Shown here in pieces: positions 34,046 to 60,671 of a DNA stretch of 64,000 nt. Under the pieces are notes generated by a model. It worked only from the letters and a program-made list of their open reading frames with translations, did not search any database and had not been told where the DNA came from. The position numbers were made by a program, and so were the translations under genes. The DNA comes from Sphingopyxis sp. CCNWLW2 (GTDB taxonomy: Bacteria > Pseudomonadota > Alphaproteobacteria > Sphingomonadales > Sphingomonadaceae), in assembly GCF_037095755.1 (NCBI RefSeq), contig NZ_JBAWKJ010000001.1, forward strand, positions 1,243,001-1,307,000, read 5' to 3'. Position 1 is the first letter of the stretch, and each line of letters starts with the position of its first letter.

Positions 34046-34122
<77 letters not shown>

Positions 34123-37939: not shown

Positions 37940-37945
37940 GAAGCA

Positions 37946-44832: not shown

Positions 44833-44851
44833 AGAACAGGGGAGGATTTCG

Positions 44852-47083
44852 ATGACCAAGGGAACCACGCGAAGCGCTGCTCGTCCGATGCTTGCGCTCC
44901 TGCTGGCGGGTGTATCGGCGCCCGCGCTCGCGCAGGAAGCAGCCGCTCCAACCGCCACCGATGCCGCGGCCGCCGAAACGGTCGATGGCACCGACATTGT
45001 CGTCACCGCGCAGAAACGATCCGAACGCTTGCAGGACGTCCCGATCGCGGTCAGCGCCATCGGCGGGGATTCGCTAGAGCGGCAGCGCGTGACGCAGGCC
45101 GACGAACTTGCGGGCAAGATCGTCAACCTCCAGCTCACCTCGACGGTCGGCGACAATACGCCGATCTTCGCGCTGCGCGGCGTGTCGATGTCCGACTACA
45201 GCCTCAACCAGGCGAGTCCGGTCGCGATCTATTATGACGAGGTCTACAAGGGCAATTTCGCCTTCCTCGGCGTTGCGATGTACGACCTTGAGCGCGTCGA
45301 GGTGCTGCGCGGGCCGCAGGGAACGCTCTATGGCAAGAACACCACGGGCGGCGCGGTCAACCTGATCAGCCGGACGCCGGTGCTCGGCGATACCGAGGGC
45401 TATCTGAACCTCGGCTATGGCAATTACGATCGCTACGAAGCCAATGGCGCCCTGAGCGTGCCGCTCGGCGAGACGGTGGCGGCGCGCGTCGCCTTCACCT
45501 TTGCGCGCGCCGATGGCTGGTTCAAGAACCAGCTTCCCGGCGAGCCCGATCTTGCGAGCGTGCGCGAATATGGCGTGCGTGGATCGCTGCTATTCGAGCC
45601 GAGCGACGGTGCGCGGTTCGTGTTGCGTGCGTCGACCAGTTACCAGAATCCGCGCAATTATGGCATTTATGCCCAGCCCGAAGCGGTGAACCGGCCGGGA
45701 CTCGGGCGGCGCGAGATCGAGGCGAACGTCACCGACCGCCGCCGCGCGCGCACCTGGTCGGTCTCGCTGAGCGGCACGGTCGACCTCTCCGACACGCTCG
45801 CGATCACCAGCGTCACCTCGTGGGACAAGGGGCGGCTGGCTTTCTATGAGGACACCGACGGCAACGCGACCGAGCTGCTCGAAATCCCCTATACCGACCG
45901 CGCGACGCAATTCGCGCAGGATCTGCGCCTGACCAGCGATTTCGGGGGACCGTTCAACTTCATTCTCGGCGCCTATTTCAACCGCGAGAAAGTCTATAAC
46001 GAGACGACGTTCGAGATCGGCAAGGATATAGATTCCGACGGGCTGCCGGGGGTCACCGACGCCGATTGCGCGATCGGCTTCCCCTTGGGCTGCCTGTTCC
46101 GCAACAGCTTCGACCAGGTCAAGAAGAGCTATGCCGTCTATTCGGACATGAGTTTCGAGCTTACGGACCAGCTCACCTTGCGTGGCGGCATCCGCTTCAC
46201 GCACGACAAGGGCACGCAGAGCAATTTCGAGGCCAACGCCTTCGGTCCCAACGGGGTGCTGGTGATGAACCTGATCCCGCCGTCGCGGCTCGCCTACAGC
46301 ACCGAAAATCTGTCGGGCAAGATCGGCGCCGATTTCAAGATCAACCCCGATGTGATGGTCTATGGCAATTACAGCCGCGGTTACCGCGCGCCGAGCTTCA
46401 ACGCGCAGGCCTTTTTCGATCCGTCCGAACTGTCGGTCGCGAAAGCTGAAAAGATCGACGCATTCGAGCTAGGCCTCAAGAGCCAGTTCGCCGACCGCCG
46501 CGTCACGCTCAACATGGCGGCGTTCCACTATACCTACAGCAACCAGCAGTTCATCAATATCGATCCCGCGACCGCGGCGCAGACTTTGCTCAATATCCCG
46601 CGCTCGCGGATTCTGGGAGGCGAGGCCGAGCTGACCGTCCGCGCGACCGACATGGTGACGCTGCGCGGCGGCCTTGGCCTGCTCGATACGAAGATCAAGC
46701 GCGGCACCGTCAGCGGCGCCGATGTCAGCGGCAATCGGCTGTCGAACGCGCCCAAGCTGACCTTCACGGGCGGCTTTGACGTCACCGCGATGGACAACAG
46801 CAGCGGCAAGCTGAGCCTGCACGGCGACATCAACTATTCGTCGAGCCAATATTTCGAGGTGCTCAACATCGCCCGACTGCGGCAGGATAGCTACGTCCTC
46901 CTCGCCGGGCATATCGACTGGGAATCGGCCGACGGGCGCTGGACGGCATCGGTGTGGGGCAAGAACCTTACCAATAAATTCTACTTCACCTCGCGCGTCG
47001 ACCTGCTCGCGGGCTTCGGTTTCGACTATAACCATGTCGGGACTCCGCGAACCTATGGCGTGACCGTGGGCGTCAAATTCTGA
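44852..47083 (+). CDS. TonB-dependent receptor in the amine catabolic operon
   Basis: A 743-residue outer-membrane receptor: signal peptide ending A-L-A-Q, TonB-box-like D-I-V-V-T-A-Q-K-R, plug with V-L-R-G-P-Q-G-T-L-Y-G-K-N and a barrel that ends V-T-V-G-V-K-F. The ATG at 44852 follows GGGGAGGA, 19 bp after the second cytochrome gene, so it is co-transcribed with the amine dehydrogenase. This suggests active uptake of the amine or a larger amine-bearing compound, a combination not typical of the known mau/aau operons. Ligand is inferred from context. Confidence 0.9.
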   Translation: MTKGTTRSAARPMLALLLAGVSAPALAQEAAAPTATDAAAAETVDGTDIVVTAQKRSERLQDVPIAVSAIGGDSLERQRVTQADELAGKIVNLQLTSTVGDNTPIFALRGVSMSDYSLNQASPVAIYYDEVYKGNFAFLGVAMYDLERVEVLRGPQGTLYGKNTTGGAVNLISRTPVLGDTEGYLNLGYGNYDRYEANGALSVPLGETVAARVAFTFARADGWFKNQLPGEPDLASVREYGVRGSLLFEPSDGARFVLRASTSYQNPRNYGIYAQPEAVNRPGLGRREIEANVTDRRRARTWSVSLSGTVDLSDTLAITSVTSWDKGRLAFYEDTDGNATELLEIPYTDRATQFAQDLRLTSDFGGPFNFILGAYFNREKVYNETTFEIGKDIDSDGLPGVTDADCAIGFPLGCLFRNSFDQVKKSYAVYSDMSFELTDQLTLRGGIRFTHDKGTQSNFEANAFGPNGVLVMNLIPPSRLAYSTENLSGKIGADFKINPDVMVYGNYSRGYRAPSFNAQAFFDPSELSVAKAEKIDAFELGLKSQFADRRVTLNMAAFHYTYSNQQFINIDPATAAQTLLNIPRSRILGGEAELTVRATDMVTLRGGLGLLDTKIKRGTVSGADVSGNRLSNAPKLTFTGGFDVTAMDNSSGKLSLHGDINYSSSQYFEVLNIARLRQDSYVLLAGHIDWESADGRWTASVWGKNLTNKFYFTSRVDLLAGFGFDYNHVGTPRTYGVTVGVKF

Positions 47084-47097
47084 CCGGGAGAGAAGCG

Positions 47098-48507
47098 ATG
47101 TCCGACTATAAGATGCTGATCGGCGGACGGCTGGTCGACGGCGACCACGCGATGGACGTCATCAACCCCGCGACCGAGGAGATATTCGCCACCGTAGCGC
47201 GGGCGTCGGAGCGGCAGGCTGACGAAGCGATCGAGGCCGCTGCGGCGGCTTTCCCCGGATGGGCCGAAACCCCGATGGCCGAGCGGCAAGCGAAGGTCAG
47301 CCAGCTGGCCGATGCGATCGTCGCGAATGCCGACCGGTTCGCGCGCGCGCTGACGCAGGAACAGGGCAAGCCGCTCGCCGAGGCGCAGGGTGAGATCGCG
47401 TGGGCCGAAGGTTATCTTCGCCACTATGCGACGCTCGAGATCGCCGAGCGGACGATCCAGGACGATGCGAGCGGGCTGATTCAGGTGCGCCGGAAGCCGC
47501 TCGGCGTTGTCGCGGGCATCATCGCGTGGAACTTCCCGCTGCTCGTCGCCTGCTGGAAGATCGGCCCCGCGGTGATCGCGGGCAACAGTATCGTGCTCAA
47601 GCCTGCGCCGACGACGCCGGTGACGGCGCTGATGCTCGGCGAACTCTGCCACGACATCTTCCCAGCCGGGGTGGTAAACATCATCACCGACGCCAATGAC
47701 CTTGGCGGTTATCTCACCGCCGACCCGCGCATCGCCAAGGTCGGCTTCACCGGATCGACCGCAACGGGCAAGAAGATCATGGCGAGCGCCGCCGACGGGC
47801 TCAAGCGGCTGACGCTCGAACTCGGCGGCAACGACCCTGGGATCGTGCTCGACGATGTCGATGTGCGCGCCACCGCGCAGGGGATTTTCAACGCCGCTTT
47901 CCTCAATTGCGGACAGGTGTGCCTCGCGATCAAGCGCGCCTATGTCCACGACAGCATCTATGATGCGATGTGCGACGAACTGGCGCGGCTCGCCGAGGCG
48001 GCGGTGGTCGACGACGGGCTGGCGCAGGGCGCGCAGATCGGGCCGATTCAGAACAAGGCACAATATGAAAAGGTGAAGGCCTTCCTCGACAGCGCGCGCA
48101 AGGACGGCACGATCGTCGCGGGCGGCGAGATCATCGACCGCGCGGGCTATTTCCTGCGCCCGACGATCGTCCGCGACGTCACTGACGGCCATGAAATCGT
48201 CGACGAGGAACAGTTCGGCCCGATCCTGCCGGTGATCCGCTTTTCGGACGTCGACGATGTCGTCGCGCGCGCCAATGCGTCGCCCTATGGCCTCGGCGCG
48301 TCGGTGTGGTCGCGCGATATCGATCGCGCGCTGGCGGTCGCGAACCGGATCGAGAGTGGATCGGTGTGGGTGAACCAGCATGTCGCGATCGGCCCGCATA
48401 TTCCGATGGCGGGCGTCAAGTCCTCGGGGCTCGGCGTCGAGCAGTCGGAGGAGGGGCTTGCCGAATATACGCAATTGTCGGTGATCAACGTGGCGCGCGG
48501 CGGATGA
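47098..48507 (+). CDS. NAD(P)-dependent aldehyde dehydrogenase
   Basis: A 469-residue enzyme with the general-base Glu241 (L-E-L-G-G-N-D) and catalytic Cys275 (G-Q-V-C), plus W-N-F-P-L and F-T-G-S-T-A-T-G for cofactor binding. It follows the receptor gene by 14 bp with GGGAGAGAAG as ribosome site. It would oxidise the aldehyde released by the amine dehydrogenase to the acid. Its own stop overlaps the next acyl-CoA synthetase gene. Substrate range is not readable; the family is the general ALDH superfamily. Confidence 0.92.
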   Translation: MSDYKMLIGGRLVDGDHAMDVINPATEEIFATVARASERQADEAIEAAAAAFPGWAETPMAERQAKVSQLADAIVANADRFARALTQEQGKPLAEAQGEIAWAEGYLRHYATLEIAERTIQDDASGLIQVRRKPLGVVAGIIAWNFPLLVACWKIGPAVIAGNSIVLKPAPTTPVTALMLGELCHDIFPAGVVNIITDANDLGGYLTADPRIAKVGFTGSTATGKKIMASAADGLKRLTLELGGNDPGIVLDDVDVRATAQGIFNAAFLNCGQVCLAIKRAYVHDSIYDAMCDELARLAEAAVVDDGLAQGAQIGPIQNKAQYEKVKAFLDSARKDGTIVAGGEIIDRAGYFLRPTIVRDVTDGHEIVDEEQFGPILPVIRFSDVDDVVARANASPYGLGASVWSRDIDRALAVANRIESGSVWVNQHVAIGPHIPMAGVKSSGLGVEQSEEGLAEYTQLSVINVARGG

Positions 48508-50096
48508 GCGAGGCTTTCGACTGGAATCCGCCGGCGCACTATAATTTCGCGCGCGACGCGATTGACCGGCTGGCGCGTGAAAGGCCGCATGATCGCGCGA
48601 TGCTGTGGACCGATGCGGCGGGGACGGTCGTCGACCGCAGCTTCGCCGAGCTGTCGGAACATAGCGCGCGCGCTGCCGCGGTGTTGAAGGCGGCGGGGGT
48701 CGGGCGCGGCGACACGGTGCTGATCCTGATGTCGCGCGAGATCGAATGGTGGGAACTGATGCTCGCGTGCTTGCGGCTTGGCGCGATCGCCTCGCCGGGG
48801 ACGGTGCAGCTCACGCCGAAGGACATCGCCTATCGCTGCGAGGCGGCCGACGCGCGCTGCATCGTCGCCGGCGTCGACGTCGCGCCGCGCGTCGACGAAA
48901 CACCGGTCGATGCCGCGATCCCGCTCATTCATGTCGGCGGCGCCCGTCCGGGCTGGATCGATTATACGCAAGCCAAGTCGGCCATCGAGCCGCTGCCGGA
49001 CATTGCCGATACCGCGTTCGACGACCCCGCGCTCTGCTATTTCACCAGCGGCACGACGGGCCAGCCGAAGATGACGATCCACGGCGCGGGCTATCCGCTC
49101 GCGCACGAGATTACCGGGCGCTTCTGGCTCGACCTTGGTCCCGGCGACCTGCACTGGAACATGTCGGACACCGGCTGGGCGAAGGCGGCGTGGAGCAGCC
49201 TGTTCGCGCCGTGGCTGATGGGCGCCGCGATCTTCGTCAACCATGCGCCGGGGTTCGACCCTGCCGCTGCGATGGACCTGCTCGAACGCCACCCGGTGAC
49301 GACATTGTGCGCCCCTCCGACCGCCTATCGCATGTTCGTGCGTGCCGATTTGGGCGGCCGGAGCTTCCCCCGGCTTCGCCACTGCGTCAGCGCGGGCGAG
49401 CCGCTCAATCCCGAGGTGATCGACCTGTGGAAGAAAGCGACCGGGCTCGATATCCACGATGGTTACGGGCAGACCGAAACGGTGCTGCTCTGCTGCAATC
49501 GCGCGGGTGCGGCGCGGCAGGGCGCGATGGGGCGGCCGACGCCCGGCATCGATCTCGCGGTGATCGGGCACGACGGCGCGATATTGCCGCCGGACGAGGA
49601 GGGCGACATTGCGCTGCGGGTCGGCGAAGAACGTCCGCCCGGCCTGTTTCTCGGCTATCGCGGCGACCCTGACCGCACCGCGAGCGTGTTCCGCGATGGC
49701 TGGTATCTGACCGGCGATCGCGCGACGGTCGATGCCGACGGCTTTTTCTGGTTCGTCGGGCGCGCTGACGATGTCATCCTCTCGTCGGGTTATCGTATCG
49801 GGCCGTTCGAGGTCGAAAGTGTGCTGTTCGAGCATGAGGCGGTCGCGGAGAGCGCCGTGGTCGCCAGCCCCGATCCGACGCGCGGCGAAGTCGTGAAAGC
49901 CTTCATCGTCCTGGCGGCGGGGCACAGTCCGTCGGACGCGCTCGCCAAGGCGTTGCAGGACCATGTGAAGGCGGCGACCGCGCCCTATAAATATCCGCGC
50001 CGCATCGAGTTTGTGAGCAGCCTGCCCAAGACGGTCAGCGGTAAGATCCGGCGTAAGGAATTACGCGACAATGAGTTCAAGAAGGCGGATGCATGA
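48504..50096 (+). CDS. AMP-dependent acyl-CoA synthetase (medium-chain/ACSM-like)
   Basis: A 530-residue ligase activating a carboxylic acid to its CoA ester through an acyl adenylate. Motifs are [10 protein letters not shown] (P-loop), the Y-G-Q-T-E-T adenylate motif, Y-L-T-G-D-R-A and the catalytic lysine in [10 protein letters not shown]. The fold order and H-W-N-M-S-D-T-G-W place it with acetyl/medium-chain acyl-CoA synthetases. It is coupled by 4-bp overlaps to the ALDH before and the second synthetase after, so it likely activates the acid formed from the amine. Confidence 0.92.
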
Positions 50097-51742
50097 TCGA
50101 CAGTTTCGTTCGCGGTGACACGAGCGGTTCGCTGATCGAGATGACGATCGGCGACTGTTTCGACCGCACCGCCGCGCGCCATCCCGATGGCGAGGCGCTG
50201 GTCGTCCGGCATCAGGATGTGCGCTGGACCTGGCGCGAGCTCAGGGCGCGGGTCGATGCGGTGGCGGCGGGGCTGATCGCGCGCGGGCTGAAACCCGGTG
50301 ACCGGGTGGGCATCTGGGCGCCCAATTGCGCCGAATGGGTGATCGTCCAGTTCGCGACCGCAAAGGCGGGGCTGATCCTCGTCAACATCAACCCGGCGTA
50401 TCGCATCGCCGAGGTCGAATATGCGCTACGCAAGGTCGGCTGCGCGGCGCTGATCCTCGCGGCCTCGCACAAGAGCAGCGACTATGTCGCGATGATCGGT
50501 GAACTCGCGCCCGAGCTTGCGGCATCGGCGCCCGGCATGCTCAAGACGGCGCGGCTTCCGGACCTGCGCCTCGTCGTCGTGCTCGGCGAGGCAGAACATG
50601 GGGGCTGCCTGCCGTTCGCGGCGCTCGCGAGCGCGGACACCGCCGTGCTTTCGGACATCCGGCTCGATCCCGGCATGGCGGTCAACATCCAGTTCACCAG
50701 CGGCACCACTGGCTTTCCGAAGGGCGCGACGCTGTCGCACCGCAGCATCCTCAACAATGGCGCCTTCGTCGGCGCGCGTATCGGTCTCTCGATCGCCGAC
50801 CGGCTGTGCATCCCGGTGCCGCTCTATCATTGCTTCGGCATGGTGATGGGCAATCTGGCGTGCATGGTTCACGGTGCGACGATGGTCTATCCGGCCGAGG
50901 CCTTCGACCCGCAGGCAGTGCTGGAAGCGGTCGAGGCCGAGCGTTGCACCGCGCTCTATGGCGTGCCGACGATGTTCATCGCGGCGCTCCAGCACCCCGA
51001 ATTCGACCGCTTCGACCTGTCGTCGTTGCGCACCGGGATCATGGCGGGGTCGCCGTGCCCAATGGCGGTGATGCGCGAAGTGATCGAGCGGATGCACATG
51101 GCGGAGGTCACGATCGCCTATGGCATGACCGAGACCAGCCCGGTCAGCTTCCAGAGCGATACCGACGATCCGCTCGACCTCCGCGTGTCGACGGTCGGGC
51201 GCGTTCAGCCGCACCTCGAGGTCAAGCTGATCGACCTTGCGGGCGAGGTCGTGCCGGGTGGGCAGACGGGCGAGCTTTGCACGCGCGGCTATTCGGTGAT
51301 GCTGGGTTATTGGGACGACGCCGAGCGCACCGCCGATGCGATCGACGACGACGGGTGGATGCATACCGGTGACCTCGCGGTGATCGACGCGGCGGGCTAT
51401 TGCCGGATCGTGGGGCGGATCAAGGATATGGTGATCCGCGGCGGTGAGAATATCTACCCGCGCGAGATCGAGGAATTTCTGATGGGCCACCCCGACATCG
51501 CCGACGTGCAGGGCGTCGGTATTCCCGACGAGAAATATGGCGAGGAATTATGCGTCTGGATCATTCCGCGCGCCGGGGTCGAGCTCAGCGAGGGCGACGT
51601 GCGCGCGCACTGCCGGGGCCGTATCGCCCACTATAAGATTCCGCGCCACATCCTGTTTGTCGACGCCTTTCCGATGACGGTGACCGGAAAGGTACAGAAG
51701 TTCGCGATGCGCGAGCGCACGCTGGAATTGCTGAATGGCTGA
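50093..51742 (+). CDS. AMP-dependent acyl-CoA synthetase (ACSF2/FadD-like)
   Basis: A 549-residue adenylate-forming ligase with [26 protein letters not shown] and the lysine in M-T-V-T-G-K-V-Q-K. The [13 protein letters not shown] motif is typical of FadD/ACSF2-like enzymes. It is clearly different from the synthetase just before it, so the operon carries two acyl-CoA synthetases of different subfamilies; they may serve different chain lengths or ring types. It is the last gene of the operon. Confidence 0.9.
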
Positions 51743-51860
51743 CGGATCGCATCCGGTTTGAGGGGTGCCTGCTTCGCGCCTTGTCAGCCGTTCGGGCCAT
51801 TGAAGACTGGGACCTCAAAGCGAAGGCTGGACAACATATGCCCTCAAGACATGGGGAGCA

Positions 51861-53279
51861 TCAGGCGGCTTGCAGATTTGCCTCCTTGGCCGCATTTGCC
51901 GGATCGATCGTGACGCCGGGACCGGCCGTACCGAACCTGCGCTCCACGCGAATGCCCATCGATTGCAGGAAGGCGGTGGACAACTCGCCGCCAGCGCAAA
52001 TGATGACATCGTCGTTCGGCAGGTCGAGCAGTTCGGCGTGATGCCGGAGCGCGATGGCGCCATGTCGCACCTCCTCCATGGACGATTGCAGATAGAGCGT
52101 GACACGGCCCGCTGCCACGGCGGCGGCGATCGCGTCGCGATTCTGCCTTCGCGTCCGGCTAAAAGCCTCCCGCCGATAGGAAAGGGCGACCTCGGTGCCT
52201 GGCTGCTCGGCCAGCGCGACAGCGGCCTCGATCGCGCTGTCGCCCCCGCCGACGACCAGCACGCGCCGGCCAGCATATTGCGCCGGGTCGGTCAGGCGAT
52301 AGACGACCTTGCTCCGCTCCTCGCCCGGCACGCCCAGCTTGCGCGGGGTTCCGCGCCGGCCGATCGCCAGCAGCACCCGCCGGGCGCGATACACGCCGTG
52401 CGCTGTTCTGACCGTAAAGCCCCGGTTGCCGGGCGTGACATCCACCACTCTTTCGTTGCAACGGATATGCAGCCCGGTCCGCTCGATGACATCCTGCCAT
52501 ATCCCCAGCAACGCTTCCTTGCGGATTTCGCGGAAGCGGAGTTCCCCGAAGAGCGGCAGTTTTACCGGTGCGGTCATAATCAGCTTGTTGCGCGGGAAAT
52601 GCGCTACGGTTCCGCCCAGACTATCTTGCTCGACCGTTTCGAAACGCAGGCCGAGTTCCATCGCCCGCAGGCTGGCGGCAATACCCGCCGGGCCCGCGCC
52701 GACGATCATCAGGTCGAGCATGTCGTCCGCATCATCGGCTTCGTTCGCGGCGGCGATCGCGTCGACAGCCTCGGTCCCCTGCTTCACGGCGTTGCGGATC
52801 AGCCCCATGCCGCCGATCTCGCCGGCGAGATAGATACCGGGGACATTGGTTTCGAAATCGGGGCTGACGAACGGGATGTCGATGCCGCGCGTGGCCGTGC
52901 CGAAGACCAGCGACAGTGCGTCGGCCGGGCATGCCTGCTGACAGGCGCCGTGCCCGATGCAGCGGGTCGGGTCGATGAGCGTGGCTTTCCCTTCCAAGAG
53001 GCCGAGCACGTCGCCTTCGGGGCACGCCAGCACACATGCCGAGCAGCCGATGCATTTGGCGGTGTCGATGACGGGGTGGAGCGAATTGGGCTCGGTCAGC
53101 CCGGCGTCGCGCGCATCTTCCAATATGGTGTGACTTTTGCGCTCGATGGCGCGGTGCCGCGCCCAATAGCTCAGCCAGATGGGCAATGCCGGGAGCGCGT
53201 AGGCGAGCGCCGCCGTGTCAAACGGCAGTCTTGGTAACGCCGCGAGGGCGTCGGCGAAAACCGCCGGGTCAAAGGGCAT
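51861..53279 (-). CDS. Membrane-anchored ferredoxin / thioredoxin-reductase-like flavoprotein
   Basis: A 472-residue fusion. Residues about 20-42 form a hydrophobic anchor, then two ferredoxin-type clusters (about 73-130): C-I-G-C-S-A-C-V-L-A-C-P and C-I-G-H-G-A-C-Q-Q-A-C-P, where the second Cys is His. From about 190 a FAD/NAD(P) module follows with I-V-G-A-G-P-A-G and V-V-G-G-G-D-S-A-I, like thioredoxin reductase but without its CxxC. It could pass electrons between NAD(P)H and a membrane carrier. It is divergent from the cytochrome b gene of the multihaem operon; working with that system is inferred from proximity. Confidence 0.82.
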   Translation of the reverse strand: MPFDPAVFADALAALPRLPFDTAALAYALPALPIWLSYWARHRAIERKSHTILEDARDAGLTEPNSLHPVIDTAKCIGCSACVLACPEGDVLGLLEGKATLIDPTRCIGHGACQQACPADALSLVFGTATRGIDIPFVSPDFETNVPGIYLAGEIGGMGLIRNAVKQGTEAVDAIAAANEADDADDMLDLMIVGAGPAGIAASLRAMELGLRFETVEQDSLGGTVAHFPRNKLIMTAPVKLPLFGELRFREIRKEALLGIWQDVIERTGLHIRCNERVVDVTPGNRGFTVRTAHGVYRARRVLLAIGRRGTPRKLGVPGEERSKVVYRLTDPAQYAGRRVLVVGGGDSAIEAAVALAEQPGTEVALSYRREAFSRTRRQNRDAIAAAVAAGRVTLYLQSSMEEVRHGAIALRHHAELLDLPNDDVIICAGGELSTAFLQSMGIRVERRFGTAGPGVTIDPANAAKEANLQAA

Positions 53280-53600
53280 TGCGACTCCATCATATGTCTG
53301 CGGATTTTTCCGCTATTTCCCCCTCTGGATGCCCTCCGCGGCCCTAAGAGCCGTCATTGCCACAAGAGGAAAGACCCCCTGCGCTCGGCGGTGCGGCATT
53401 CGCGTCGATGGGAGGTTCAAGCCGCGTCTCTGTTCGGCGCTCGGGGCGGCGAGCGATATGGATTTTACCGCGCTCAGTTCTCTCGAAATCAATGTTCAAA
53501 ATCTGGAAGGAGTAGGCCAAATTATATAGATAGACTAATAATTTGTCATGCCGAAGAGGGAGGTCTAGCCTAGTAAACATGCCCTAGAGGGTGGACCAAA
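53280..53600. promoter_or_regulatory. 321-bp divergent promoter region of the redox module
   Basis: This stretch separates the flavoprotein gene (reading left) and the cytochrome b gene (reading right) and must contain both promoters. A short hairpin GCGGA-TTTT-TCCGC lies at 53300-53313. The right half (about 53480-53580) is AT-rich, with ATTATATAGATAG. GAGGGTGG precedes the cytochrome b start. Short open frames here look spurious; I see no gene. Confidence 0.5.
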
Positions 53601-54494
53601 ATGGAGTCGGAACAGCTCACTCTCGCAGCCAGAGAGGCGTCGGCACCCCAAGGGAAAGCAATTGTTTCTTTTGAAACAGTTTTTTCCTTCCTTATTTTAT
53701 TGTTCATACCCGCCGCCATCTTGTGGGGTTGGTGGCATCGCGCGGAATTGCCGACGCCCGAGGATGGCCTTGGTTATGCGCTCGGGATCATCGGCGTGAC
53801 GATGATGGCCATCCTTATGATCTATCCGCTCCGCAAAAGGCTGACCGGAGCAACATGGATGGGATCGGTCGGCACCTGGTTTCGCATCCACATGCTGCTT
53901 GGCCTGCTCGGGCCGCTGGTCATTCTTTACCACGCGCGCTTTACATGGGCGGCGACGAACAGCGGTGTCGCGCTGCTTGCCTTGCTGGTGGTCGTCGCAA
54001 GCGGGCTTTTCGGGCGCTTTCTATATGTCCATATCCATCGCGGATATTCGCAGCGAAAGCTGGAAGTTCGCGATTTTCTCGACGAACTTGGCGAATCGCG
54101 GCTCCTGCTCAACGCCGATGGCGACGCCGGTCACCTTATCGTCGGCTATCTTCGCGAGCTTGAGCGGCACGCCCTGGAAAAGCGGTCCAACCTGCTTCAT
54201 GGCGCGTTCGCGGTGTTTTCCATCACGGTCCGCACATGGCTGTTCGCCTGGCGCCTTCGAGGTGTCGTGCGCACCGAACTGGCCCGGGAAGCTTCGCTTC
54301 CGGGCCGGCGGGCGACGACCGACAGCCAGGCGTTGATCGATCACCTGACGCGCTATCTGCAATCGATCCGTGACGTCGGCGGGTTCGCCTTCTACGACCG
54401 CCTGTTCCGGGCCTGGCATTATCTGCACGTACCGCTGTTCCTGTTCCTCGCGATGACCGTGGCGCTGCACGTCCTCGCCGTCCATATGTACTGA
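53601..54494 (+). CDS. Di-haem b-type membrane cytochrome with two H-x13-H pairs
   Basis: A 297-residue integral membrane protein with about six helices (about 26-44, 59-77, 92-113, 119-142, 203-220 and 275-296) and a soluble loop from 147 to 200. His97 and His111 (helix 3) and His276 and His290 (last helix) each form an H-x13-H pair, the spacing used in ferric-reductase/NOX-type cytochromes to ligate two stacked b haems between two helices. No flavin or nucleotide domain is attached. It shares one base with the start of the 21-haem cytochrome gene, so it probably passes quinol or flavoprotein electrons to it. Confidence 0.75.
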   Translation: MESEQLTLAAREASAPQGKAIVSFETVFSFLILLFIPAAILWGWWHRAELPTPEDGLGYALGIIGVTMMAILMIYPLRKRLTGATWMGSVGTWFRIHMLLGLLGPLVILYHARFTWAATNSGVALLALLVVVASGLFGRFLYVHIHRGYSQRKLEVRDFLDELGESRLLLNADGDAGHLIVGYLRELERHALEKRSNLLHGAFAVFSITVRTWLFAWRLRGVVRTELAREASLPGRRATTDSQALIDHLTRYLQSIRDVGGFAFYDRLFRAWHYLHVPLFLFLAMTVALHVLAVHMY

Positions 54495-56101
54495 TGTCGC
54501 GGACCTCGGTCCTTGTCGGCGCGCTCGTGCTGCTGGCGATGATCGGGGGACTGCTCGCGTTGCGCCCGACGCTGGAGCGGCTGGTCAGTCCCGGCCCGCT
54601 GCGCCCCGCGCATGCGAAGATCGAGGCGCGCTGCGGCGCCTGCCATTATTCCTTCACCCCGTCGGCCGAGAATGGCAAGTGCAAGGCTTGCCATGCGGGC
54701 GTCGCCAACGATGTTCGCCTGCGCACCGGCTTTCACGGTCGCACGCCATCGGCCGCGAAACAGCAATGCCGTGCCTGCCATCTCGAGCATCAGGGCGCCG
54801 TCCAGTTCGCCGCGAACCTTAAGGGCACCGGCTTCGACCATGGCAAGACCGATTTTCCCATCCACGGCAAGCATCGCGGTGTCGCCTGCGCGAACTGCCA
54901 CAAGTCCGGAATGAAGTTTCGTGCCGCGCCCGCCGCCTGCGTTGCCTGCCATGTCAAAGACGACGTTCATCAAACCCGTTTCGGCAAGAATTGCGCCAGC
55001 TGCCACAGCGAAAGCGGCTGGAAGATCATCCATAAGTTCGATCACGCGGCGACCGGTTTTCAATTGGTCGGCGCGCATCAGACGACCGCTTGCGCCGATT
55101 GCCATGTCGCCAATCGCTTCGCCGGAACGCCGAAACAATGCGTCGCCTGCCATCTGGCGGACGATGTCCACGAGGGGCGCAACGGCACCGACTGTGCCAG
55201 CTGCCACACCCCGCTGAGCTGGAAAGGCGCCCTGTTCGACCATGGACGGACGCGTTTTCCGCTCGTCGGCCAGCATCGCACGGTCCCCTGCACCGCCTGC
55301 CACGGCGCCCGGAACGAGCGGCTGCGTCCGCCGATGCAGTGCGCCGCCTGTCACCGCAAAGACGATGTCCATAAGGGCGTCAACGGCAGCAACTGCGCGA
55401 CCTGCCACTCGCCAGCGAGCTGGAAAGGCGCGTTTTTCGATCACAACAAGGCGACGCGTTTTCCGCTGCTCGGGGCGCACAAGCGGGTGCGCTGCGCCAC
55501 CTGCCACGTCAAACCCGTGCACAGCTTCAAACCATCGCGCGAATGCGCCGGGTGCCATGTCCGCCAGGATCCCCATCAGGGCAAGCTGGGACGAAATTGC
55601 GCGGCGTGCCACTCGCAGGACCGCTGGCGGCCGGCGCCGGGCTTTCATCATGCTGCGACGCGCTTTCCGCTGACCGGCGCCCACAGCCGCGTCGCGTGCG
55701 CCGATTGTCACCGGAATATGCAATATCGCGCCGCAGGTGTCACATGCGCCAGTTGCCACGCCGACATCGCGCACAAGGGCCGGTTCGGCACGCCAGCGAG
55801 GTGCGAGACATGCCACACGACCGCGCGCTGGACCGGCGCGCGGTTTAACCATGATCGCACGGGTTTTTCGCTGACCGGCCGCCATGCCCGGCTCGCCTGC
55901 AACAGCTGCCACACCAGGCCGGCGGCGACCGCGCGGCTGCCGGTGGGCTGTTACGGCTGCCACAAGGCCGACGATCATCACGAAGGCCGTTTCGGCACGA
56001 AATGCGAAACCTGCCATGTCGGGGGCGACAGCTTCAAGACGGTGCGCGTCCCCGCGAACGCGCGCCGCCATCCGGATTTCGACGGGAGGCACCTGCGATG
56101 A
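54494..56101 (+). CDS. 21-haem c-type cytochrome
   Basis: A 535-residue protein with an N-terminal hydrophobic helix (about 5-23), probably an uncleaved anchor or signal, and 21 CxxCH haem-binding motifs. Three lie at residues 47-96. The remaining 18 fall in six tandem modules of about 67 residues starting near residues 114, 182, 248, 315, 384 and 451. Each module opens with an F-D-H...T-x-F-x-L-x-G-x-H stretch and carries three haems; extra His residues can serve as sixth ligands. It should be a periplasmic electron wire. The start shares a base with the cytochrome b stop; the end overlaps the pentahaem gene by 4 bp. Confidence 0.9.
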   Translation: MSRTSVLVGALVLLAMIGGLLALRPTLERLVSPGPLRPAHAKIEARCGACHYSFTPSAENGKCKACHAGVANDVRLRTGFHGRTPSAAKQQCRACHLEHQGAVQFAANLKGTGFDHGKTDFPIHGKHRGVACANCHKSGMKFRAAPAACVACHVKDDVHQTRFGKNCASCHSESGWKIIHKFDHAATGFQLVGAHQTTACADCHVANRFAGTPKQCVACHLADDVHEGRNGTDCASCHTPLSWKGALFDHGRTRFPLVGQHRTVPCTACHGARNERLRPPMQCAACHRKDDVHKGVNGSNCATCHSPASWKGAFFDHNKATRFPLLGAHKRVRCATCHVKPVHSFKPSRECAGCHVRQDPHQGKLGRNCAACHSQDRWRPAPGFHHAATRFPLTGAHSRVACADCHRNMQYRAAGVTCASCHADIAHKGRFGTPARCETCHTTARWTGARFNHDRTGFSLTGRHARLACNSCHTRPAATARLPVGCYGCHKADDHHEGRFGTKCETCHVGGDSFKTVRVPANARRHPDFDGRHLR

Positions 56102-56565
56102 TCAAAGCCTGGATCGCCCTGCTGGGCTGTTTCCTTGTCGGCGCGCTGGCCGCCGCGGCGACGTCCGATCCGCCGCCGATCAAGGTCATCGACCGCTATG
56201 ACCATATCTCGACGGGGTTCGTGCTCGACGGGCGGCATGCCGAAATCGGCTGCGACACCTGCCACGCCAAGGCGGTGTTCCGCGGCACGCCGCGCATCTG
56301 CGCCGCCTGTCACAACAACGTCCGCGCCGAGGGCAAGACATTTCGCCACATCCCCACGACCGATGCGTGCGAAAGCTGCCATACCACCAAGGACTGGCTG
56401 ACCGCGCGGTTCGACCACAGCGGCGTCGTGACCAATTGCGTCAGTTGCCACAATAATTTCCAGGCGCCCGGCAAGACCGCCAACCACCCGCCGACCAGCA
56501 ATCAATGCCAGGATTGCCACCGGGCGATCCATTGGAACCAGCTGTTGCCGGGAGCGGCGCCATGA
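56098..56565 (+). CDS. Pentahaem c-type cytochrome
   Basis: A 155-residue periplasmic protein with a signal peptide (about 1-24) and five CxxCH motifs (C-D-T-C-H, C-A-A-C-H, C-E-S-C-H, C-V-S-C-H, C-Q-D-C-H). Its first part, Y-D-H-I-S-T-G-F-V-L-D-G-R-H, is homologous to the repeat unit of the 21-haem protein, so it looks like a split-off module. It overlaps the genes on both sides by 4 bp. It may bridge the long cytochrome to the barrel protein or dock inside that barrel. Confidence 0.88.
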   Translation: MIKAWIALLGCFLVGALAAAATSDPPPIKVIDRYDHISTGFVLDGRHAEIGCDTCHAKAVFRGTPRICAACHNNVRAEGKTFRHIPTTDACESCHTTKDWLTARFDHSGVVTNCVSCHNNFQAPGKTANHPPTSNQCQDCHRAIHWNQLLPGAAP

Positions 56566-58718
56566 GCGCGCATGCCGCCTTTGAAGCCTTGCTCAAGATC
56601 GCGCTCGCGCTGTTACTGCTGTTTTGGGCGAGCCATGCCGGGGCAGAGCGCGGCAGCGACAAGGTGTTGGCCGACGCAAGCGCGGCGGGCACCATCGACT
56701 GCCCGACCGTGACGATCCATTTCACGGGCCCGATCCGTTACAGCGGCGCGGCCCCGACCGACCAGGGAATGGACGTGCGGTTGCGGGTCGAGATGGTGCA
56801 GCGCGGCGCGCGTCCCGATCGCGATTTCCTGCCCGTGCCCGATGGCACGCCGCTGGTCCGTTCGATCGTCTATGAAGCCGACGCCGTCGGCGGGCCGGTG
56901 CTGACGATCGGTTTTCGCACGCTCACCCGCTTCGAAATCGCCCTGGGGCATGACTCGCAAAGCCTTGTGCTGTCGCTGCGCAACATCGCCCTTCAAGGCG
57001 GCTGCCCGGTCGAACCGGCTGCGGACGGCGCTGTTGCGCCGCTGGACGACGACGAATTGCGCCGTCTCCAGATGGTGGCCGAAGAGGCGGTGGCGGCGGG
57101 TCAATATGAAGCGGCCGGCGCCGCGCTCGACCGCATCCTTGGCCAAGGCGACACCGATTATGCACCGCGCGCGCTGGAACTCAGCGGCATGATCCACGAA
57201 CGTCGCGGCGAACGCGGGCCGGCGCGGCTGCGCTATGAGGAATATCTGCGGCGTTTTACGGGCTCGCCGGGCGCCGATCGGGTCGGGCAGCGGCTGGCGG
57301 CGCTGGGCCGGGACGGCGGGGGCGAGCCCGCACGGCCGAGCGTGGACGGGCGCGAATGGCGCACCACCTTCTCGGGCGGTCTTTCGCAATTTTATTCGCG
57401 CGATACCAGCCGCAATGTTTTCGTCGATGCGCGCCGGCCCGATCCGATCGAGGAGATCGACCGGCGCGTCAACATCGACCAGTTGCTGACCGCGATCGAC
57501 ATCAACATGGCGGCGACCAACGGCGAGACCCGGTTCAGCGCGCGCGCCGCCGGCAGCTATACGCTCGATTGGCGGCCGGTCACGCTTGTCGGCTCCTCGC
57601 GCAGTTCGGGCGACGACACCCAGCGCATCGCCGCGCTGTACGTCGATGTCCAGCATTATCGCCTTGGCCTTTCGGCGCGGATCGGGCGGCAGTCGCTGTT
57701 CGGTTCGGGCGTGTTCGGCCGGTTCGACGGCATCCGTGCGGGATGGGAGATCGATCCGTCGTGGACGCTCCACGCGCAGGCGGGGCGCCCGGTCTTTTCG
57801 ACCCGCACCGACCGGATCGAGCGGGACCGACGTTTCTACGGTTTCACGCTGGGCTATGCGCCGCGCGACAAGCCGTTCGAGCTCAATGCTTATTGGTTCG
57901 ATCAAAAAAGCGGCGGGCTGACCGACCGACAGGCGGTCGGCGTTGAGGCGCGCTATAGCACGCCGGGGGTCGCTTTGTGGGGGCTGGTCGACTTCGACGT
58001 CGGCTTTGGCAAGCTCAGCCATGCCTTCCTGAACGCCACCGTGCCGCTGCGGGGCGGCGGCAGTCTGGGCGTGCAGTTCGACCAGCAATATTATCCCCAA
58101 CTCTCGCTCAGCAACAGCGTGATCGGCCAGTCGGTGCACCGCCTCGGCGAGCTCAAGCAGCTGTTCACGCGCCAGATGCTGGAACAATGGGCGCGCGATC
58201 GATCGGCACGAACGCGCAGCCTGTCGGTGGTTTATACCCAGCCGCTGACACCCAAATGGCAGGCCAATCTCGACCTCATCCTGTCGCGTACCGGCAGCAT
58301 CCCGGCATCGGGCGGGGTCGATGCGGTCGCGGTCAGCGGCACCGAAATTTATCTGGGCGCGCAGATGACGGGCAACGGCATCGTCAGGAAAGGCGACACG
58401 CTCATCTTTGGGCTGCGCCATGCGCGGACGGCCCGTTTCAACATCATTTCGTTCGATTCGGCGGCGCGCTTCCCCGTGGGGCGGGTCAGCGTCGAGCCGC
58501 GATTCCGCTTCGCGCGGCGCACCGATCGCTTTGGCCCGGGCCACCAAAATGCCTATCGCCCCAGCCTGCGCGTCACTTACGCCGCGTCGACGAAGGTGGC
58601 GCTGGACGCCGAAATCGGCTTCACCTTCCTCGACCAGCGATGGTCCGACGCGGCGTTCGTCGGCAAAAGCGAAGAGCGCGCGACGATCTTGAACCTTGGC
58701 TATCGTGTTTCGTTCTAG
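56562..58718 (+). CDS. Large outer-membrane beta-barrel protein with periplasmic TPR-like domain
   Basis: A 718-residue protein: signal peptide (about 1-28, ending A-G-A), a beta-type domain (about 35-155), a TPR-like helical stretch (about 165-250), and from about 270 on alternating amphipathic strands ending in R-V-S-F, a barrel C-terminus. It has no haem motif. Its translation is coupled by a 4-bp overlap to the pentahaem gene, as in MtrAB/PioAB-type porin-cytochrome operons where a barrel sheathes the cytochrome. The sequence does not visibly match MtrB. A conduit role is inference; it could be a receptor or a secretion/export barrel. Confidence 0.75.
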   Translation: MSAHAAFEALLKIALALLLLFWASHAGAERGSDKVLADASAAGTIDCPTVTIHFTGPIRYSGAAPTDQGMDVRLRVEMVQRGARPDRDFLPVPDGTPLVRSIVYEADAVGGPVLTIGFRTLTRFEIALGHDSQSLVLSLRNIALQGGCPVEPAADGAVAPLDDDELRRLQMVAEEAVAAGQYEAAGAALDRILGQGDTDYAPRALELSGMIHERRGERGPARLRYEEYLRRFTGSPGADRVGQRLAALGRDGGGEPARPSVDGREWRTTFSGGLSQFYSRDTSRNVFVDARRPDPIEEIDRRVNIDQLLTAIDINMAATNGETRFSARAAGSYTLDWRPVTLVGSSRSSGDDTQRIAALYVDVQHYRLGLSARIGRQSLFGSGVFGRFDGIRAGWEIDPSWTLHAQAGRPVFSTRTDRIERDRRFYGFTLGYAPRDKPFELNAYWFDQKSGGLTDRQAVGVEARYSTPGVALWGLVDFDVGFGKLSHAFLNATVPLRGGGSLGVQFDQQYYPQLSLSNSVIGQSVHRLGELKQLFTRQMLEQWARDRSARTRSLSVVYTQPLTPKWQANLDLILSRTGSIPASGGVDAVAVSGTEIYLGAQMTGNGIVRKGDTLIFGLRHARTARFNIISFDSAARFPVGRVSVEPRFRFARRTDRFGPGHQNAYRPSLRVTYAASTKVALDAEIGFTFLDQRWSDAAFVGKSEERATILNLGYRVSF

Positions 58719-58862
58719 CGTCGACGGACGATTATGCGCGATGGCAGGCGATCATAGGCCGGCCGGCGTCCGCTTCTCACGAACTGCCCAGAAACCGACA
58801 GTCCGCTACCGGTCAATGAAGGTGATCCGCGAACGCCGATTCACGCCAATCTGTGACGCAGC

Positions 58863-58997
58863 CTAGCAGTTGCCTTTAACTCCATCGGCACAGTCTGCAG
58901 CGGATTCAACGTCTTTTCCAGCACCTTCAACTGTGTTGCAAGCAGACAGGATCAACAGCGATCCGCTAATTGCGAAAATTGTCAGAAGCTTTTTCAT
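58863..58997 (-). CDS. Entericidin-like small lipoprotein
   Basis: A 44-residue peptide: M-K-K start, hydrophobic stretch and lipobox L-S-A-C with the lipidated Cys near residue 19. The short tail V-E-G-A-G-K-D-V-E-S-A-A-D is the entericidin A/B signature. The ATG at 58997 has GGAGAGAGAGA upstream; a longer frame is less likely. Entericidins are small outer-membrane lipoproteins of a proposed toxin-antidote pair, but in alphaproteobacteria single copies are common and probably act in envelope stress. Confidence 0.85.
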   Translation of the reverse strand: MKKLLTIFAISGSLLILSACNTVEGAGKDVESAADCADGVKGNC

Positions 58998-59136
58998 TCT
59001 CTCTCTCCGACCGCGAGGGCGAACCACCCTCCATTTGAGTTTCCATATTTTGACAACAGCTGTTCGCAACGATCGTTCCGTTGCATCGGCGTCACGCTGG
59101 CCGAAGCGTTCAAAATGATCGCCAGGCTGGGGGAGA

Positions 59137-59301
59137 ATGAAAAGATCGGATGATATATCTGCGCTTGTCCGACGTGAATATCCGGATGCCGAAACCCGGC
59201 ACTTCGTCGCTTTCGCGAAAGCGGTGCGTAAGCCACAGGGCTTATTCTTGGCGGGATCCGGGTTGGCATTGGCGGAGTTGATTTTTATCTTTTCGGAGTA
59301 A
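59137..59301 (+). CDS. Small open reading frame of unknown function (54 residues)
   Basis: From an ATG at 59137 to TAA at 59301, encoding a protein with a charged N-terminal half and a more hydrophobic C-terminal end (G-L-F-L-A-G-S-G-L-A-L-A-E-L). A GGGGGAG stretch lies close before the ATG (spacing short). It lies in a 477-bp space without other genes and just before the tRNA fragment. It may be real or a remnant of a lost gene; I cannot assign a family. Confidence 0.25.
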   Translation: MKRSDDISALVRREYPDAETRHFVAFAKAVRKPQGLFLAGSGLALAELIFIFSE

Positions 59302-59325
59302 TATTAGTGGTTTAGGTAAGAAAGG

Positions 59326-59354
59326 CAGGCTCTGGCATTGAATGGCATAGCCTG
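59326..59354. repeat. 29-bp imperfect inverted repeat beside the tRNA fragment
   Basis: The arms CAGGCTCTGGCATT and AATGGCATAGCCTG pair at 12 of 14 positions around a single central G. It ends 9 bp before the tRNA-Arg-like 3' half. It could be a recombination-site arm, an operator or a hairpin; no T-run follows, so a simple terminator is not evident. Confidence 0.55.
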
Positions 59355-59362
59355 TTAGTACC

Positions 59363-59409
59363 CCCTCCGAAGGCGGAGGCCGGGGGTTCGAATCCCTTTG
59401 GATGCGCCA
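59363..59409 (+). pseudogene. Partial tRNA-Arg 3' half (attachment-site-like remnant)
   Basis: This 47-bp segment matches bases 34076-34122 of the intact tRNA-Arg(CCG) at 43 positions, including the anticodon CTCCGAA, T loop TTCGAAT and the CCA end. The 5' half (acceptor strand and D arm) is absent; the upstream sequence is the inverted repeat described above. This is the pattern left when an element integrates into a tRNA 3' end. The four changes (two in the acceptor strand) suggest age or origin from another tRNA-Arg allele. Confidence 0.75.
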
Positions 59410-59474: not shown

Positions 59475-60671
59475 ATGTACGACCTGCTGGCCGGCCTGTC
59501 GGTGATCGAAGCTTCGTCCTTTGTCGCCTCTCCGACCGCCGGGCTTTATTGCGCGCAAATGGGCGCCGAGGTGATCCGCGTCGATCAGATCGGCGGCGGC
59601 CCCGATTTTCGCCGCTGGCCGGTGACCGACGCCAATGATTCGCTCTATTGGGAAAATCTGAACCGCGCGAAAAAGTCGGTCGCGCTCGATCTGGCGCGGC
59701 CCGAGGGGCGTGAATTGCTCCAGGCGCTGGTGCGCGCGACGGGGCAGTTCGTCACCAATTTTCCGGTCGGGGGCTTCCTGTCGCACGATGCGCTGGCCGA
59801 AGGGCGGCCCGACCTCATCACCATCCGCGTGATGGGCTGGGCCGACGGGTCGCCCGCGCTCGACTATACGGTGAACAACAGCGTCGGTTATCCGATGCTG
59901 ACCGGCGCGGGCCCCGAACCGGTCAATCATGTGCTGCCGGCGTGGGATCTGCTGACGGGCGCCTATGCCGCCTTTGCGCTGCTCGCGGCGATCCAGCGGC
60001 GCAGCGTGACCGGCGAGGGCGGCGAGGTGCGCCTGCCGCTGTCCGACGTCGCGATCGGGACCGTCGCCAATCTCGGCGGGGTCGCCGAAATGCTCTATTC
60101 GGGTGCGAACCGCCCGCGCCTCGGCAACGCCGTTTACGGCCTGTTCGGGCGCGATTTTGTCACGGCGGACGGCCAGCGAACGATGATTGTCGTGGTCACG
60201 CCGCGCCAATGGGCCAATCTGGTCGCCGCCCTAGGGCTCAATGAGGCGATCGCGGCAATTGAAGTCGCGCGCGGCGTGTCGTTCGCGACCGACGACGGGT
60301 TGCGTTTCACGCATCGCGATGCGCTCTATCCGCTGTTCGAGGCGGCTATCGCAAGCCGCGATCATGCCGATCTCGCCGCCGCCTTCGACGCGGGCGGCAT
60401 CGTTCATTCGCCTTACCGCACGATGCACGACGCGGTGCAGGACCCGGCGCTGGTCGGCGACAATCCGATCTTCGGGCACGCCGACAATCCTAGCGGATTC
60501 GCCTATCCCGCGGCGGGCGCCTTTGCGACATTGCCGCAGCAGGAACGCCAGCCGCCGCGTGCCGCGCCGCGCAACGGGCAGCATAGCGAGGAAATCCTGA
60601 GCGAGCGCCTGTCGCTTTCCTCGGGCGAGCTTGCCCGGCTGATCGATGCCGGTATCGTCGGTATCGCCTGA
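59475..60671 (+). CDS. Family III CoA-transferase / acyl-CoA isomerase-like
   Basis: A 398-residue CaiB/BaiF enzyme with L-S-V-I-E-A-S-S-F-V-A-S-P at the N-terminus, G-A-E-V-I-R-V-D and the active-site region A-W-D-L-L-T-G-A-Y with the catalytic Asp. The sequence resembles the 2-methylfumaryl-CoA isomerase (mesaconyl-CoA) branch more than formyl-CoA transferases, which would fit the methylsuccinyl-CoA dehydrogenase-like gene two positions downstream; this subfamily call is tentative. It begins 65 bp after the tRNA remnant and leads the operon with the thiolase gene. Confidence 0.82.
   Translation: MYDLLAGLSVIEASSFVASPTAGLYCAQMGAEVIRVDQIGGGPDFRRWPVTDANDSLYWENLNRAKKSVALDLARPEGRELLQALVRATGQFVTNFPVGGFLSHDALAEGRPDLITIRVMGWADGSPALDYTVNNSVGYPMLTGAGPEPVNHVLPAWDLLTGAYAAFALLAAIQRRSVTGEGGEVRLPLSDVAIGTVANLGGVAEMLYSGANRPRLGNAVYGLFGRDFVTADGQRTMIVVVTPRQWANLVAALGLNEAIAAIEVARGVSFATDDGLRFTHRDALYPLFEAAIASRDHADLAAAFDAGGIVHSPYRTMHDAVQDPALVGDNPIFGHADNPSGFAYPAAGAFATLPQQERQPPRAAPRNGQHSEEILSERLSLSSGELARLIDAGIVGIA

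What the first reader, a model, noticed from the sequence alone, without database searches (positions are those of the whole stretch)
53601..58718. 21-haem plus pentahaem cytochrome c operon with a beta-barrel: candidate new trans-envelope electron conduit
Four overlapping genes encode a di-haem membrane cytochrome b, a 21-CxxCH cytochrome, a pentahaem cytochrome and a 718-residue outer-membrane barrel. All junctions overlap by 1-4 bp, so the products are probably made in fixed ratio. The logic (membrane electron input, periplasmic haem wire, barrel) parallels MtrCAB/PioAB conduits, but the cytochrome is twice as large, built of a different repeat, and the barrel has an N-terminal TPR-like domain and no visible MtrB match. 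This would be unusual in the Sphingomonadales. What is seen is haem count, order and topology; electron export or Fe(II)/solid-phase electron uptake is inference.
Basis: partly seen in the sequence, partly recalled or inferred. Interest (0 to 1): 0.93.

Follow-up and report, generated by a model that had tools for sequence, protein, structure and literature searches.

The report
Trimmed-down PCC3 electron conduit plus flavoprotein
A Sphingopyxis-type bacterium carries a compact version of a known but untested gene set thought to wire electrons across the cell envelope, together with a flavin and iron-sulphur enzyme that seems to go with such sets and hints at what feeds the wire.

Summary
In detail: four overlapping genes encode an inner-membrane protein (IMP) with two WX3HX13H motifs, a 21-CxxCH cytochrome, a 5-CxxCH cytochrome and an outer-membrane barrel. 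It is not a new kind: composition, order and motifs match PCC3, proposed in 2017 (PMC5566968), function untested. Three things seem new. (1) The pentahaem protein is only the N-terminal head of the PCC3 extracellular cytochrome: in 24 of 24 longer homologues the best-matching five-haem stretch is the first; repeats and cap are missing. Orthologues occur in 27 of 27 genomes holding the IMP plus a 21- to 27-haem gene, but in 1 of 40 without the IMP, and are linked in 24 of the 27. This favours NAD(P)H over quinol at the inner end, and electron export. (3) In Sphingopyxis the five genes form a 7.6-kb islet beside tRNA-Arg, between tRNA-derived repeats; the five PCC3-free relatives examined have an empty site. 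Conduit function, direction and substrate are inferred.

The parts
53601..54494 (+). Inner-membrane protein (IMP), 297 aa, no Cys; W93-x3-H97-x13-H111 and W272-x3-H276-x13-H290, SGxxG at 134-138; putative two b-type haems
   Evidence: the motif set is that of PCC3 IMPs
54494..56101 (+). Periplasmic multihaem cytochrome, 535 aa, 21 CxxCH, hydrophobic N-terminal segment (residues 5-23); a 3-haem start plus six trihaem repeats
56098..56565 (+). Pentahaem cytochrome, 155 aa with a hydrophobic, signal-peptide-like N-terminus; corresponds to the N-terminal head of the PCC3 extracellular cytochrome
56562..58718 (+). Outer-membrane barrel, 718 aa: N-terminal beta domain, TPR-like helices, about 22 strands, C-terminal Phe
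51861..53279 (-). FLAV: 472-aa flavoprotein with two ferredoxin-type Fe-S motifs (CxxCxxCxxxCP and CxxHxxCxxxCP) and a thioredoxin-reductase/YpdA-like FAD/NAD(P) domain; proposed fifth component
53521..53549 (-). Promoter-like site for FLAV (ATGACA-17-TATAAT, 11 of 12), identical in the four genomes aligned
34046..34122 (+). tRNA-Arg(ccg), left edge of the integration site
59363..59409 (+). Imperfect copy (43 of 47) of the tRNA-Arg 3' end, right edge
51782..59362 (.). Five-gene islet (FLAV plus four-gene operon): left edge from comparison with G906 and G895, right edge from the PCC3-free relatives

Best explanation
A PCC3-type porin-cytochrome conduit in a pared-down form, with a five-gene functional unit. 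An Fe-S flavoprotein (FLAV), probably held at the inner membrane, takes electrons from NAD(P)H in the cytoplasm and passes them through its Fe-S centres to the IMP. The IMP carries them across the inner membrane on two stacked b haems, each held by one His from each of two helices. A 21-haem cytochrome, perhaps anchored at the inner membrane by its N-terminal segment, carries them over the periplasm. A pentahaem head inside or under the barrel takes them through the outer membrane to a diffusible or surface acceptor. The long extracellular antenna of other PCC3 systems is missing here, so the outer end should be short, as in PioAB/MtoAB compared with MtrCAB. Shown: gene content, order, motifs, agreement with PCC3, N-terminal-head identity, co-occurrence of FLAV, purifying selection, islet. 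Inferred: haem loading, complex formation, location of the pentahaem, NAD(P)H as donor, outward direction, acceptor.
For: PCC3 definition met in order, IMP motifs, periplasmic haem number and aa per haem (535/21 = 25.5). The same order IMP / periplasmic MHC / second MHC / barrel is printed for Slit_1446-1449. Here IMP, periplasmic MHC and second MHC follow each other in 27 of 36 fetched neighbourhoods; 20 of the 27 show the barrel next, in the other 7 the contig ends in or soon after the second MHC. FLAV orthologue in 27 of 27 such genomes (four of them the window's genome and its three near-identical relatives) and in 1 of 40 genomes without IMP; linked in 24 of 27. FLAV keeps its FAD and NAD(P) glycine motifs and seven Fe-S ligand residues (six Cys, one His) in every row that covers them (22-23 of 23). 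Head identity 24 of 24. Haem-maturation gene ccmF present. The five genes together form the shared islet.
Against: No PCC3 has a proven function in the papers seen. In Sideroxydans ES-1 both PCC3 clusters go down on Fe(II), which speaks against Fe(II) oxidation but does not show export. Three Sphingomonadaceae genomes have FLAV, IMP and a 15-haem cytochrome with no barrel or second cytochrome recognised in the fetched 20 kb, so the inner half may serve something in the periplasm. FLAV's second Fe-S motif has an invariant His instead of one Cys, and one Cys of the first is Ser in 4 of 22 rows, so cluster type and potential are uncertain. The IMP fold could not be tied to any cytochrome b or ferric reductase. 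FLAV is absent from one genome with a PCC3-like IMP (G659, lone IMP in a partly masked draft) and present in one without (G953). Location of the pentahaem protein is unknown.
Confidence: 0.58

Rival explanations
1. Inward PCC3: electrons from Fe(II), Mn(II) or a solid donor enter through pentahaem and 21-haem proteins and reach quinone or NAD(P)+ at the IMP/FLAV (the published model ends at the quinone pool).
For: Published hypothesis; PCC3 occurs in known Fe(II) and Mn(II) oxidisers including an Erythrobacter. Multihaem wires are reversible (recalled). FLAV's Fe-S centres need not be of low potential.
Against: A NAD(P)H-type flavoprotein partner puts the inner end uphill from Fe(II) (general chemistry, not tested here). 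Down-regulation on Fe(II) in ES-1. No energy-coupling partner was recognised in the islet.
Confidence: 0.27
2. Periplasmic role: the shortened system does not conduct outside the cell; the 26 c-type haems act as an electron store or feed a periplasmic reductase, and the barrel is a scaffold or pore.
For: Loss of repeats and cap; FLAV-IMP-15-haem loci without a recognised barrel.
Against: Barrel kept, intact and under purifying selection, its gene overlapping that of the retained pentahaem head; all five genes stay together in the islet.
Confidence: 0.13
3. A decaying copy: the extracellular cytochrome has been truncated and the locus is on its way out.
For: The second cytochrome has 5 haems, against 11-70 in the complete longer genes of the set.
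Against: dN/dS 0.086-0.154 for the pentahaem and 0.07-0.24 for all five genes; open frames in four genomes. The five-haem form is also in Stakelama marina and in metagenome proteins.
Confidence: 0.02

Closest known systems
PCC3 porin-cytochrome complex (He et al. 2017, PMC5566968; e.g. Slit_1446-1449 of Sideroxydans lithotrophicus ES-1)
   Same: IMP of about 300 aa with two WX3HX13H and SGXXG; periplasmic MHC of 21 haems (published median 21); second MHC; large barrel; same gene order
   Different: Second MHC has 5 haems instead of the 10-85 named in the papers, without repeats or cap; a FLAV gene is linked (not named as a PCC3 part in the passages read)
MtrCAB / MtoAB / PioAB
   Same: Works alike in principle: periplasmic multihaem protein plus barrel; like PioAB/MtoAB it has no large outer cytochrome
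   Different: Barrel not MtrB_PioB; 21- and 5-haem proteins not of the decahaem MtrA/DmsE family; own inner-membrane protein and flavoprotein
PCC4 (He et al. 2017)
   Same: IMP motif plan; no large extracellular MHC; an Fe-S protein in one subgroup
   Different: PCC4 IMPs are a different sequence family by the paper; PCC4 has a porin and three periplasmic MHCs; its Fe-S protein is given as pfam13247, not the flavoprotein seen here
Ferric reductase / NADPH oxidase (FRD) transmembrane flavocytochromes
   Same: Two HX13H pairs on separate helices (comparison made in PMC5566968) and, here, an NAD(P)H-type flavoprotein partner
   Different: Separate FLAV of thioredoxin-reductase/YpdA type with Fe-S motifs; no FRD Pfam match; fold not established

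Membership tests
PCC3 | Outer-membrane beta-barrel gene in the cluster | tested here: met
   AF2 model pLDDT 82, about 22 strands, C-terminal Phe; relatives in the same place of PCC3-like clusters
PCC3 | Periplasmic MHC with about 21-27 haems, 22-39 aa per haem | tested here: met
   21 CxxCH in 535 aa, 25.5 aa per haem; the same spacing pattern in 27 relatives with 21, 24 or 27. Location itself not tested
PCC3 | About 300-aa IMP, two WX3HX13H motifs and SGXXG | tested here: met
   297 aa; W93/H97/H111, W272/H276/H290, G135 and G138 invariant in 41 rows, S134 in at least 90%
PCC3 | Extracellular MHC with a large number of haems | tested here: inconclusive
   A relative is present but has 5 haems: only the N-terminal head. 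Location not testable. This is the variant feature.
PCC3 | Gene order IMP, periplasmic MHC, extracellular MHC, porin | tested here: met
   Same order as printed for Slit_1446-1449 and as in 20 of 27 neighbourhoods, the other 7 being cut by contig ends
PCC3 | Direct alignment to the named Sideroxydans ES-1 proteins | not tested
   No named ES-1 record was fetched; membership rests on motifs, order and mostly unnamed relatives
MtrCAB / PioAB | MtrB_PioB barrel (PF11854) | tested here: not met
   No match in the barrel (E up to 1); own-genome best hit 19 bits, under the 23-bit cut-off and outside the window
MtrCAB / PioAB | DmsE/MtrA-type decahaem cytochrome | tested here: not met
   Pentahaem scores 25.9 bits against a cut-off of 192.2 for TIGR03508; the 21-haem protein has no listed match to it
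PCC4 | Three periplasmic MHCs plus porin | tested here: not met
   Two MHC genes only
Ferric reductase / NOX | Ferric_reduct domain or FRD fold in the IMP | tested here: inconclusive
   No Pfam match at E up to 1; mediocre model (pLDDT 74), no Foldseek match at E 0.001 or better

The most novel reading that the evidence does not exclude
PCC3 systems in general are not quinone-linked iron oxidases but five-part NAD(P)H-driven reductases: a flavin/Fe-S enzyme plus a two-haem membrane protein form a split, ferric-reductase-like engine whose electrons run over a 21-27-haem periplasmic wire and out through a barrel. The Sphingopyxis clade shows the minimal outer end, a five-haem head without antenna, and moves the set as a tRNA-linked islet.
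Probability: 0.38. Interest if true: 0.78.

Novelty: new variant of a known kind. Interest (0 to 1): 0.56.

Why it matters
PCC3 is found in many proteobacteria, holds some of the haem-richest proteins reported (up to 85 haem sites), and its function is untested in the papers seen here. A constant flavoprotein partner gives a direct test of electron source and direction. The head-only variant is a natural deletion that may show which part of the outer cytochrome is indispensable. Named relatives (Sphingopyxis sp. LC81, Sphingopyxis sp. H053, S. fribergensis) let the question be asked outside the iron oxidisers, and the islet offers comparisons of related species with and without the set.

Tried and rejected

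Trees: a first IMP tree (31 rows) did not put the Stakelama five-haem locus with the Sphingopyxis ones (unstarred fork, 85/89). A second (15 of those loci, the window and 13 further proteins) puts all five rows that I labelled five-haem in one starred clade of ten. Two of those labels (P0030, P0031) rest only on equal contig lengths with five-haem proteins P0131 and P0126, and five of the ten rows are unlabelled. The one-clade test rejected the five rows as a clade, but I had counted the unlabelled rows inside it as outsiders, so the test was badly set and is not used.

Rows dropped: of 39 places hit by the IMP searches (own genome included) 36 neighbourhoods were fetched besides the own one; G652 (draft, stop inside) and G796 were not. 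ORF starts in relatives are mechanical (first start after a stop), so some listed lengths are too long. Other five-haem proteins without context (P0169, P0174, P0177-P0182 and a few more) may be a second short form or fragments. Figures and supplements of the PCC3 papers were not visible, so a flavoprotein drawn there could have been missed. I also corrected FLAV's Fe-S motifs and for that lowered the export odds a little (0.60 to 0.58; novel case 0.40 to 0.38; inward rival 0.25 to 0.27).
Full report
WHAT IS THERE. Four genes on the + strand, 53601-58718, overlap by 1, 4 and 4 bp and encode a 297-aa membrane protein (IMP), a 535-aa protein with 21 CxxCH, a 155-aa protein with 5 CxxCH and a 718-aa outer-membrane protein. 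Only five other CxxCH occur in all six frames of the window, so the haem count is not chance. Against three close relatives all four genes, and the divergent gene discussed below, show dN/dS of 0.07-0.24. The genome has a ccmF gene over the family cut-off, so c-type haem attachment is possible.

THE KNOWN KIND. He et al. 2017 (PMC5566968; [quoted passage not shown] The window's IMP has these: W93/H97/H111, W272/H276/H290, S134-G135-x-x-G138, invariant in 41 aligned rows apart from S134, which is at 90% or more. Its cytochrome has 21 haems at 25.5 aa per haem. The order IMP, periplasmic MHC, extracellular MHC, porin is the one printed for Slit_1446-1449 (passage of PMC12016527). PCC3 was reported in an Erythrobacter. 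Four later papers, of which I saw passages (PMC10734462, PMC12016527, PMC8788666, PMC12442390), treat it as a prediction without a tested function; in ES-1 both PCC3 clusters are down on Fe(II). PMC13386937 and PMC8258643 were seen in search listings only. A search for PCC3 with multiheme and Sphingopyxis found no paper.

DISTRIBUTION. IMP homologues at E 1e-8: 7 of 398 genomes drawn from the phylum, 21 of 396 from the order, 4 of 80 of the genus, 9 of 150 of one other family. The barrel at E 1e-10: 2 of 199 of the family. Named loci in genome contigs are Sphingopyxis sp. LC81, Sphingopyxis sp. H053 and Sphingomonadaceae bacterium 3R27C6; protein hits also name Sphingopyxis fribergensis and Stakelama marina. 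I fetched 36 neighbourhoods. In 27 the IMP is followed by a 21-, 24- or 27-haem cytochrome (14, 12 and 1 loci) and then by a second cytochrome related to the window's pentahaem protein; a barrel relative follows in 20, and in the other 7 the contig ends in or soon after the second cytochrome. The remaining nine are three loci with a 15-haem cytochrome and no recognised barrel (G814, G802, G850), a lone IMP in a partly masked draft (G659), and five loci with more distant IMPs and other cytochromes (G562, G180, G072, G686 and a second locus of G941).

ANATOMY OF THE CYTOCHROMES. The periplasmic protein has a near-fixed spacing 16-29-40 (16, 26-29 and 39-43 in the set), then repeats of about 17-18-33, so its size moves in steps of three haems: 15, 21, 24, 27. 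The second cytochrome of other loci runs from 11 to 70 haems where the gene is complete, mostly with 23-residue or longer haem spacings; 15 of these 18 complete longer genes end in a cap with a CX3-4CH motif. The window's pentahaem protein ends 14 residues after the fifth haem, with no cap. Scoring every five-haem stretch of the 24 longer homologues against it, the first stretch was best in 24 of 24, including the 70-haem protein with 66 stretches (six of the 24 are cut by contig ends, one locus gives two rows, and the scored stretch includes 18 residues before the first haem). So it corresponds to the conserved N-terminal head without repeats and cap. On an IMP tree the five rows that I could label five-haem fall in one starred clade of ten (98/97) that holds no row labelled longer; two labels rest on equal contig lengths, five rows are unlabelled, and another tree had not grouped Stakelama there. 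My reading is that the head is the part that docks to the barrel and the periplasmic wire, and that the outer antenna is dispensable; this is inference.

THE FIFTH GENE. Divergent from the operon, 51861-53279 (minus) encodes FLAV: two ferredoxin-type motifs followed by a FAD/NAD(P) domain of the thioredoxin reductase/YpdA/ferredoxin-NADP reductase type. In the 22 aligned rows that cover them (of 23) C76, C82, C86, C107, H110, C113, C117, the NAD(P) glycines and R369/R375 are invariant; C79 is Cys in 18 and Ser in 4. So the second motif carries His in place of one Cys throughout, and whether the centres are [4Fe-4S] or [3Fe-4S] is open. That such arginines point to NADPH is recalled knowledge. 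Several orthologues start with a clear membrane segment followed by positive residues; in the window's copy this is weaker. I searched FLAV in 76 genomes: 36 with an IMP hit and 40 without (IMP searched in these). Orthologues (289 bits or more) were in 27 of 27 genomes with IMP plus a 21- to 27-haem cytochrome (four of them the window's genome and its close kin), 3 of 3 with the 15-haem form, 0 of 5 with distant IMPs (G562, G180, G072, G686, G796), 0 of 1 with the lone IMP (G659), and 1 of 40 without IMP (G953, 290 contigs; no IMP even with a profile, and no PCC3 gene on that 10-kb contig). Weaker hits (108-133 bits, to long proteins) occur in controls too. FLAV is linked in 24 of the 27: in 20 within the fetched stretch or window, in G1069, G1020 and G1040 about 13-18 kb from the IMP, and in G239 by inference, as it sits directly behind a barrel and cytochrome fragment at a contig end while the IMP side ends another contig. 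In G552, G993 and G1056 the cluster runs to a contig end and FLAV is on another contig. The passages of the PCC3 papers I read name no such partner, and 'flavoprotein' is absent from the three main texts searched for it. A promoter-like site for FLAV (ATGACA-17-TATAAT) is identical in four genomes.

MECHANISM. Read by eye, positive residues place the long IMP loop between helices 4 and 5 in the cytoplasm, so H97/H276 would lie near the cytoplasmic face and H111/H290 near the periplasm: a two-haem step across the membrane (inference from sequence; the model, pLDDT 74, gave no usable fold match). With FLAV as cytoplasmic partner the inner end looks like an NAD(P)H-driven flavocytochrome rather than a quinol enzyme, which favours electron export. 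The published model runs inward to quinone; I give inward flow 0.27. The three loci with FLAV, IMP and a 15-haem cytochrome suggest these three as the core.

THE ISLET. Looking for the empty site, I found that 59475-60671, just right of the operon, has a close homologue in 76 of 80 genomes of the genus. In five PCC3-free relatives (G894, G920, G891, G816, G877; chosen from the nearest hits, the others not examined) the window's stretch up to 34122 and that from 59363 onward are contiguous; 34122 is the end of a tRNA-Arg gene, and 59363-59409 is a 43-of-47 copy of its 3' end. The interval 34123-59362 is therefore best read as inserted DNA. In the PCC3-bearing G895 the window's 34254-51781 is missing, so the inserted part is FLAV plus the four genes between the whole tRNA and a 28-base remnant; in G906 the same stretch starts at 51782 and lies between a 47-base and a 45-base tRNA copy; G889 shares 51811-59144, with a 47-base copy on its left and other DNA on its right within the fetched stretch. 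The five genes thus travel together. No integrase was recognised by eye among the ORFs in this interval; no dedicated search was made.

VERDICT. Real and well conserved; a new variant of a known but untested kind. Most valuable beyond the finding: FLAV as a probable general PCC3 part and the head-only pentahaem.

Noticed in passing
window 34046-34122 and 59363-59409: tRNA-Arg integration site; 25 kb (34123-59362) is absent between the flanks in the five PCC3-free relatives examined, and besides the PCC3 islet holds other cargo, including ORFs that look like a fimbrial usher/chaperone set (by eye only) and acyl-CoA ligases.
   Followed up: partly
L073, L074, L075 (genomes G814, G802, G850, one genus of the same family): FLAV divergent from a shorter IMP and a 15-haem cytochrome, with no barrel or second cytochrome recognised in the fetched 20 kb: a possible inner-half-only version.
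   Followed up: partly
window 51861-53279, FLAV residues 107-117: CxxHxxCxxxCP in place of a normal four-cysteine ferredoxin motif, with the His invariant in 22 of 22 rows.
   Followed up: partly
L053, L076, L077, L078: A distant system: an 836-920-aa ORF with a FLAV-like stretch upstream of a remote IMP and a 10-haem cytochrome.
   Followed up: no
L048 4823-6998, L059 14036-15573 and L060-L063: DsbE/CcmG-like and TPR genes (CcmH/I-like by eye) near PCC3 clusters, perhaps dedicated cytochrome maturation.
   Followed up: partly
L057-L063 and L082, between FLAV and IMP: A conserved 614-635-aa repeat protein (ankyrin-like by profile for the one copy scanned) in one group of PCC3 loci.
   Followed up: no
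P0169, P0174, P0177-P0182: Other five-haem homologues of 149-154 aa (P0181 170 aa) with different C-termini, possibly a second independent short form.
   Followed up: no
window 53280-53600: The intergenic region between FLAV and IMP is 95% identical on average over four genomes, with long invariant blocks: a conserved leader upstream of FLAV.
   Followed up: no
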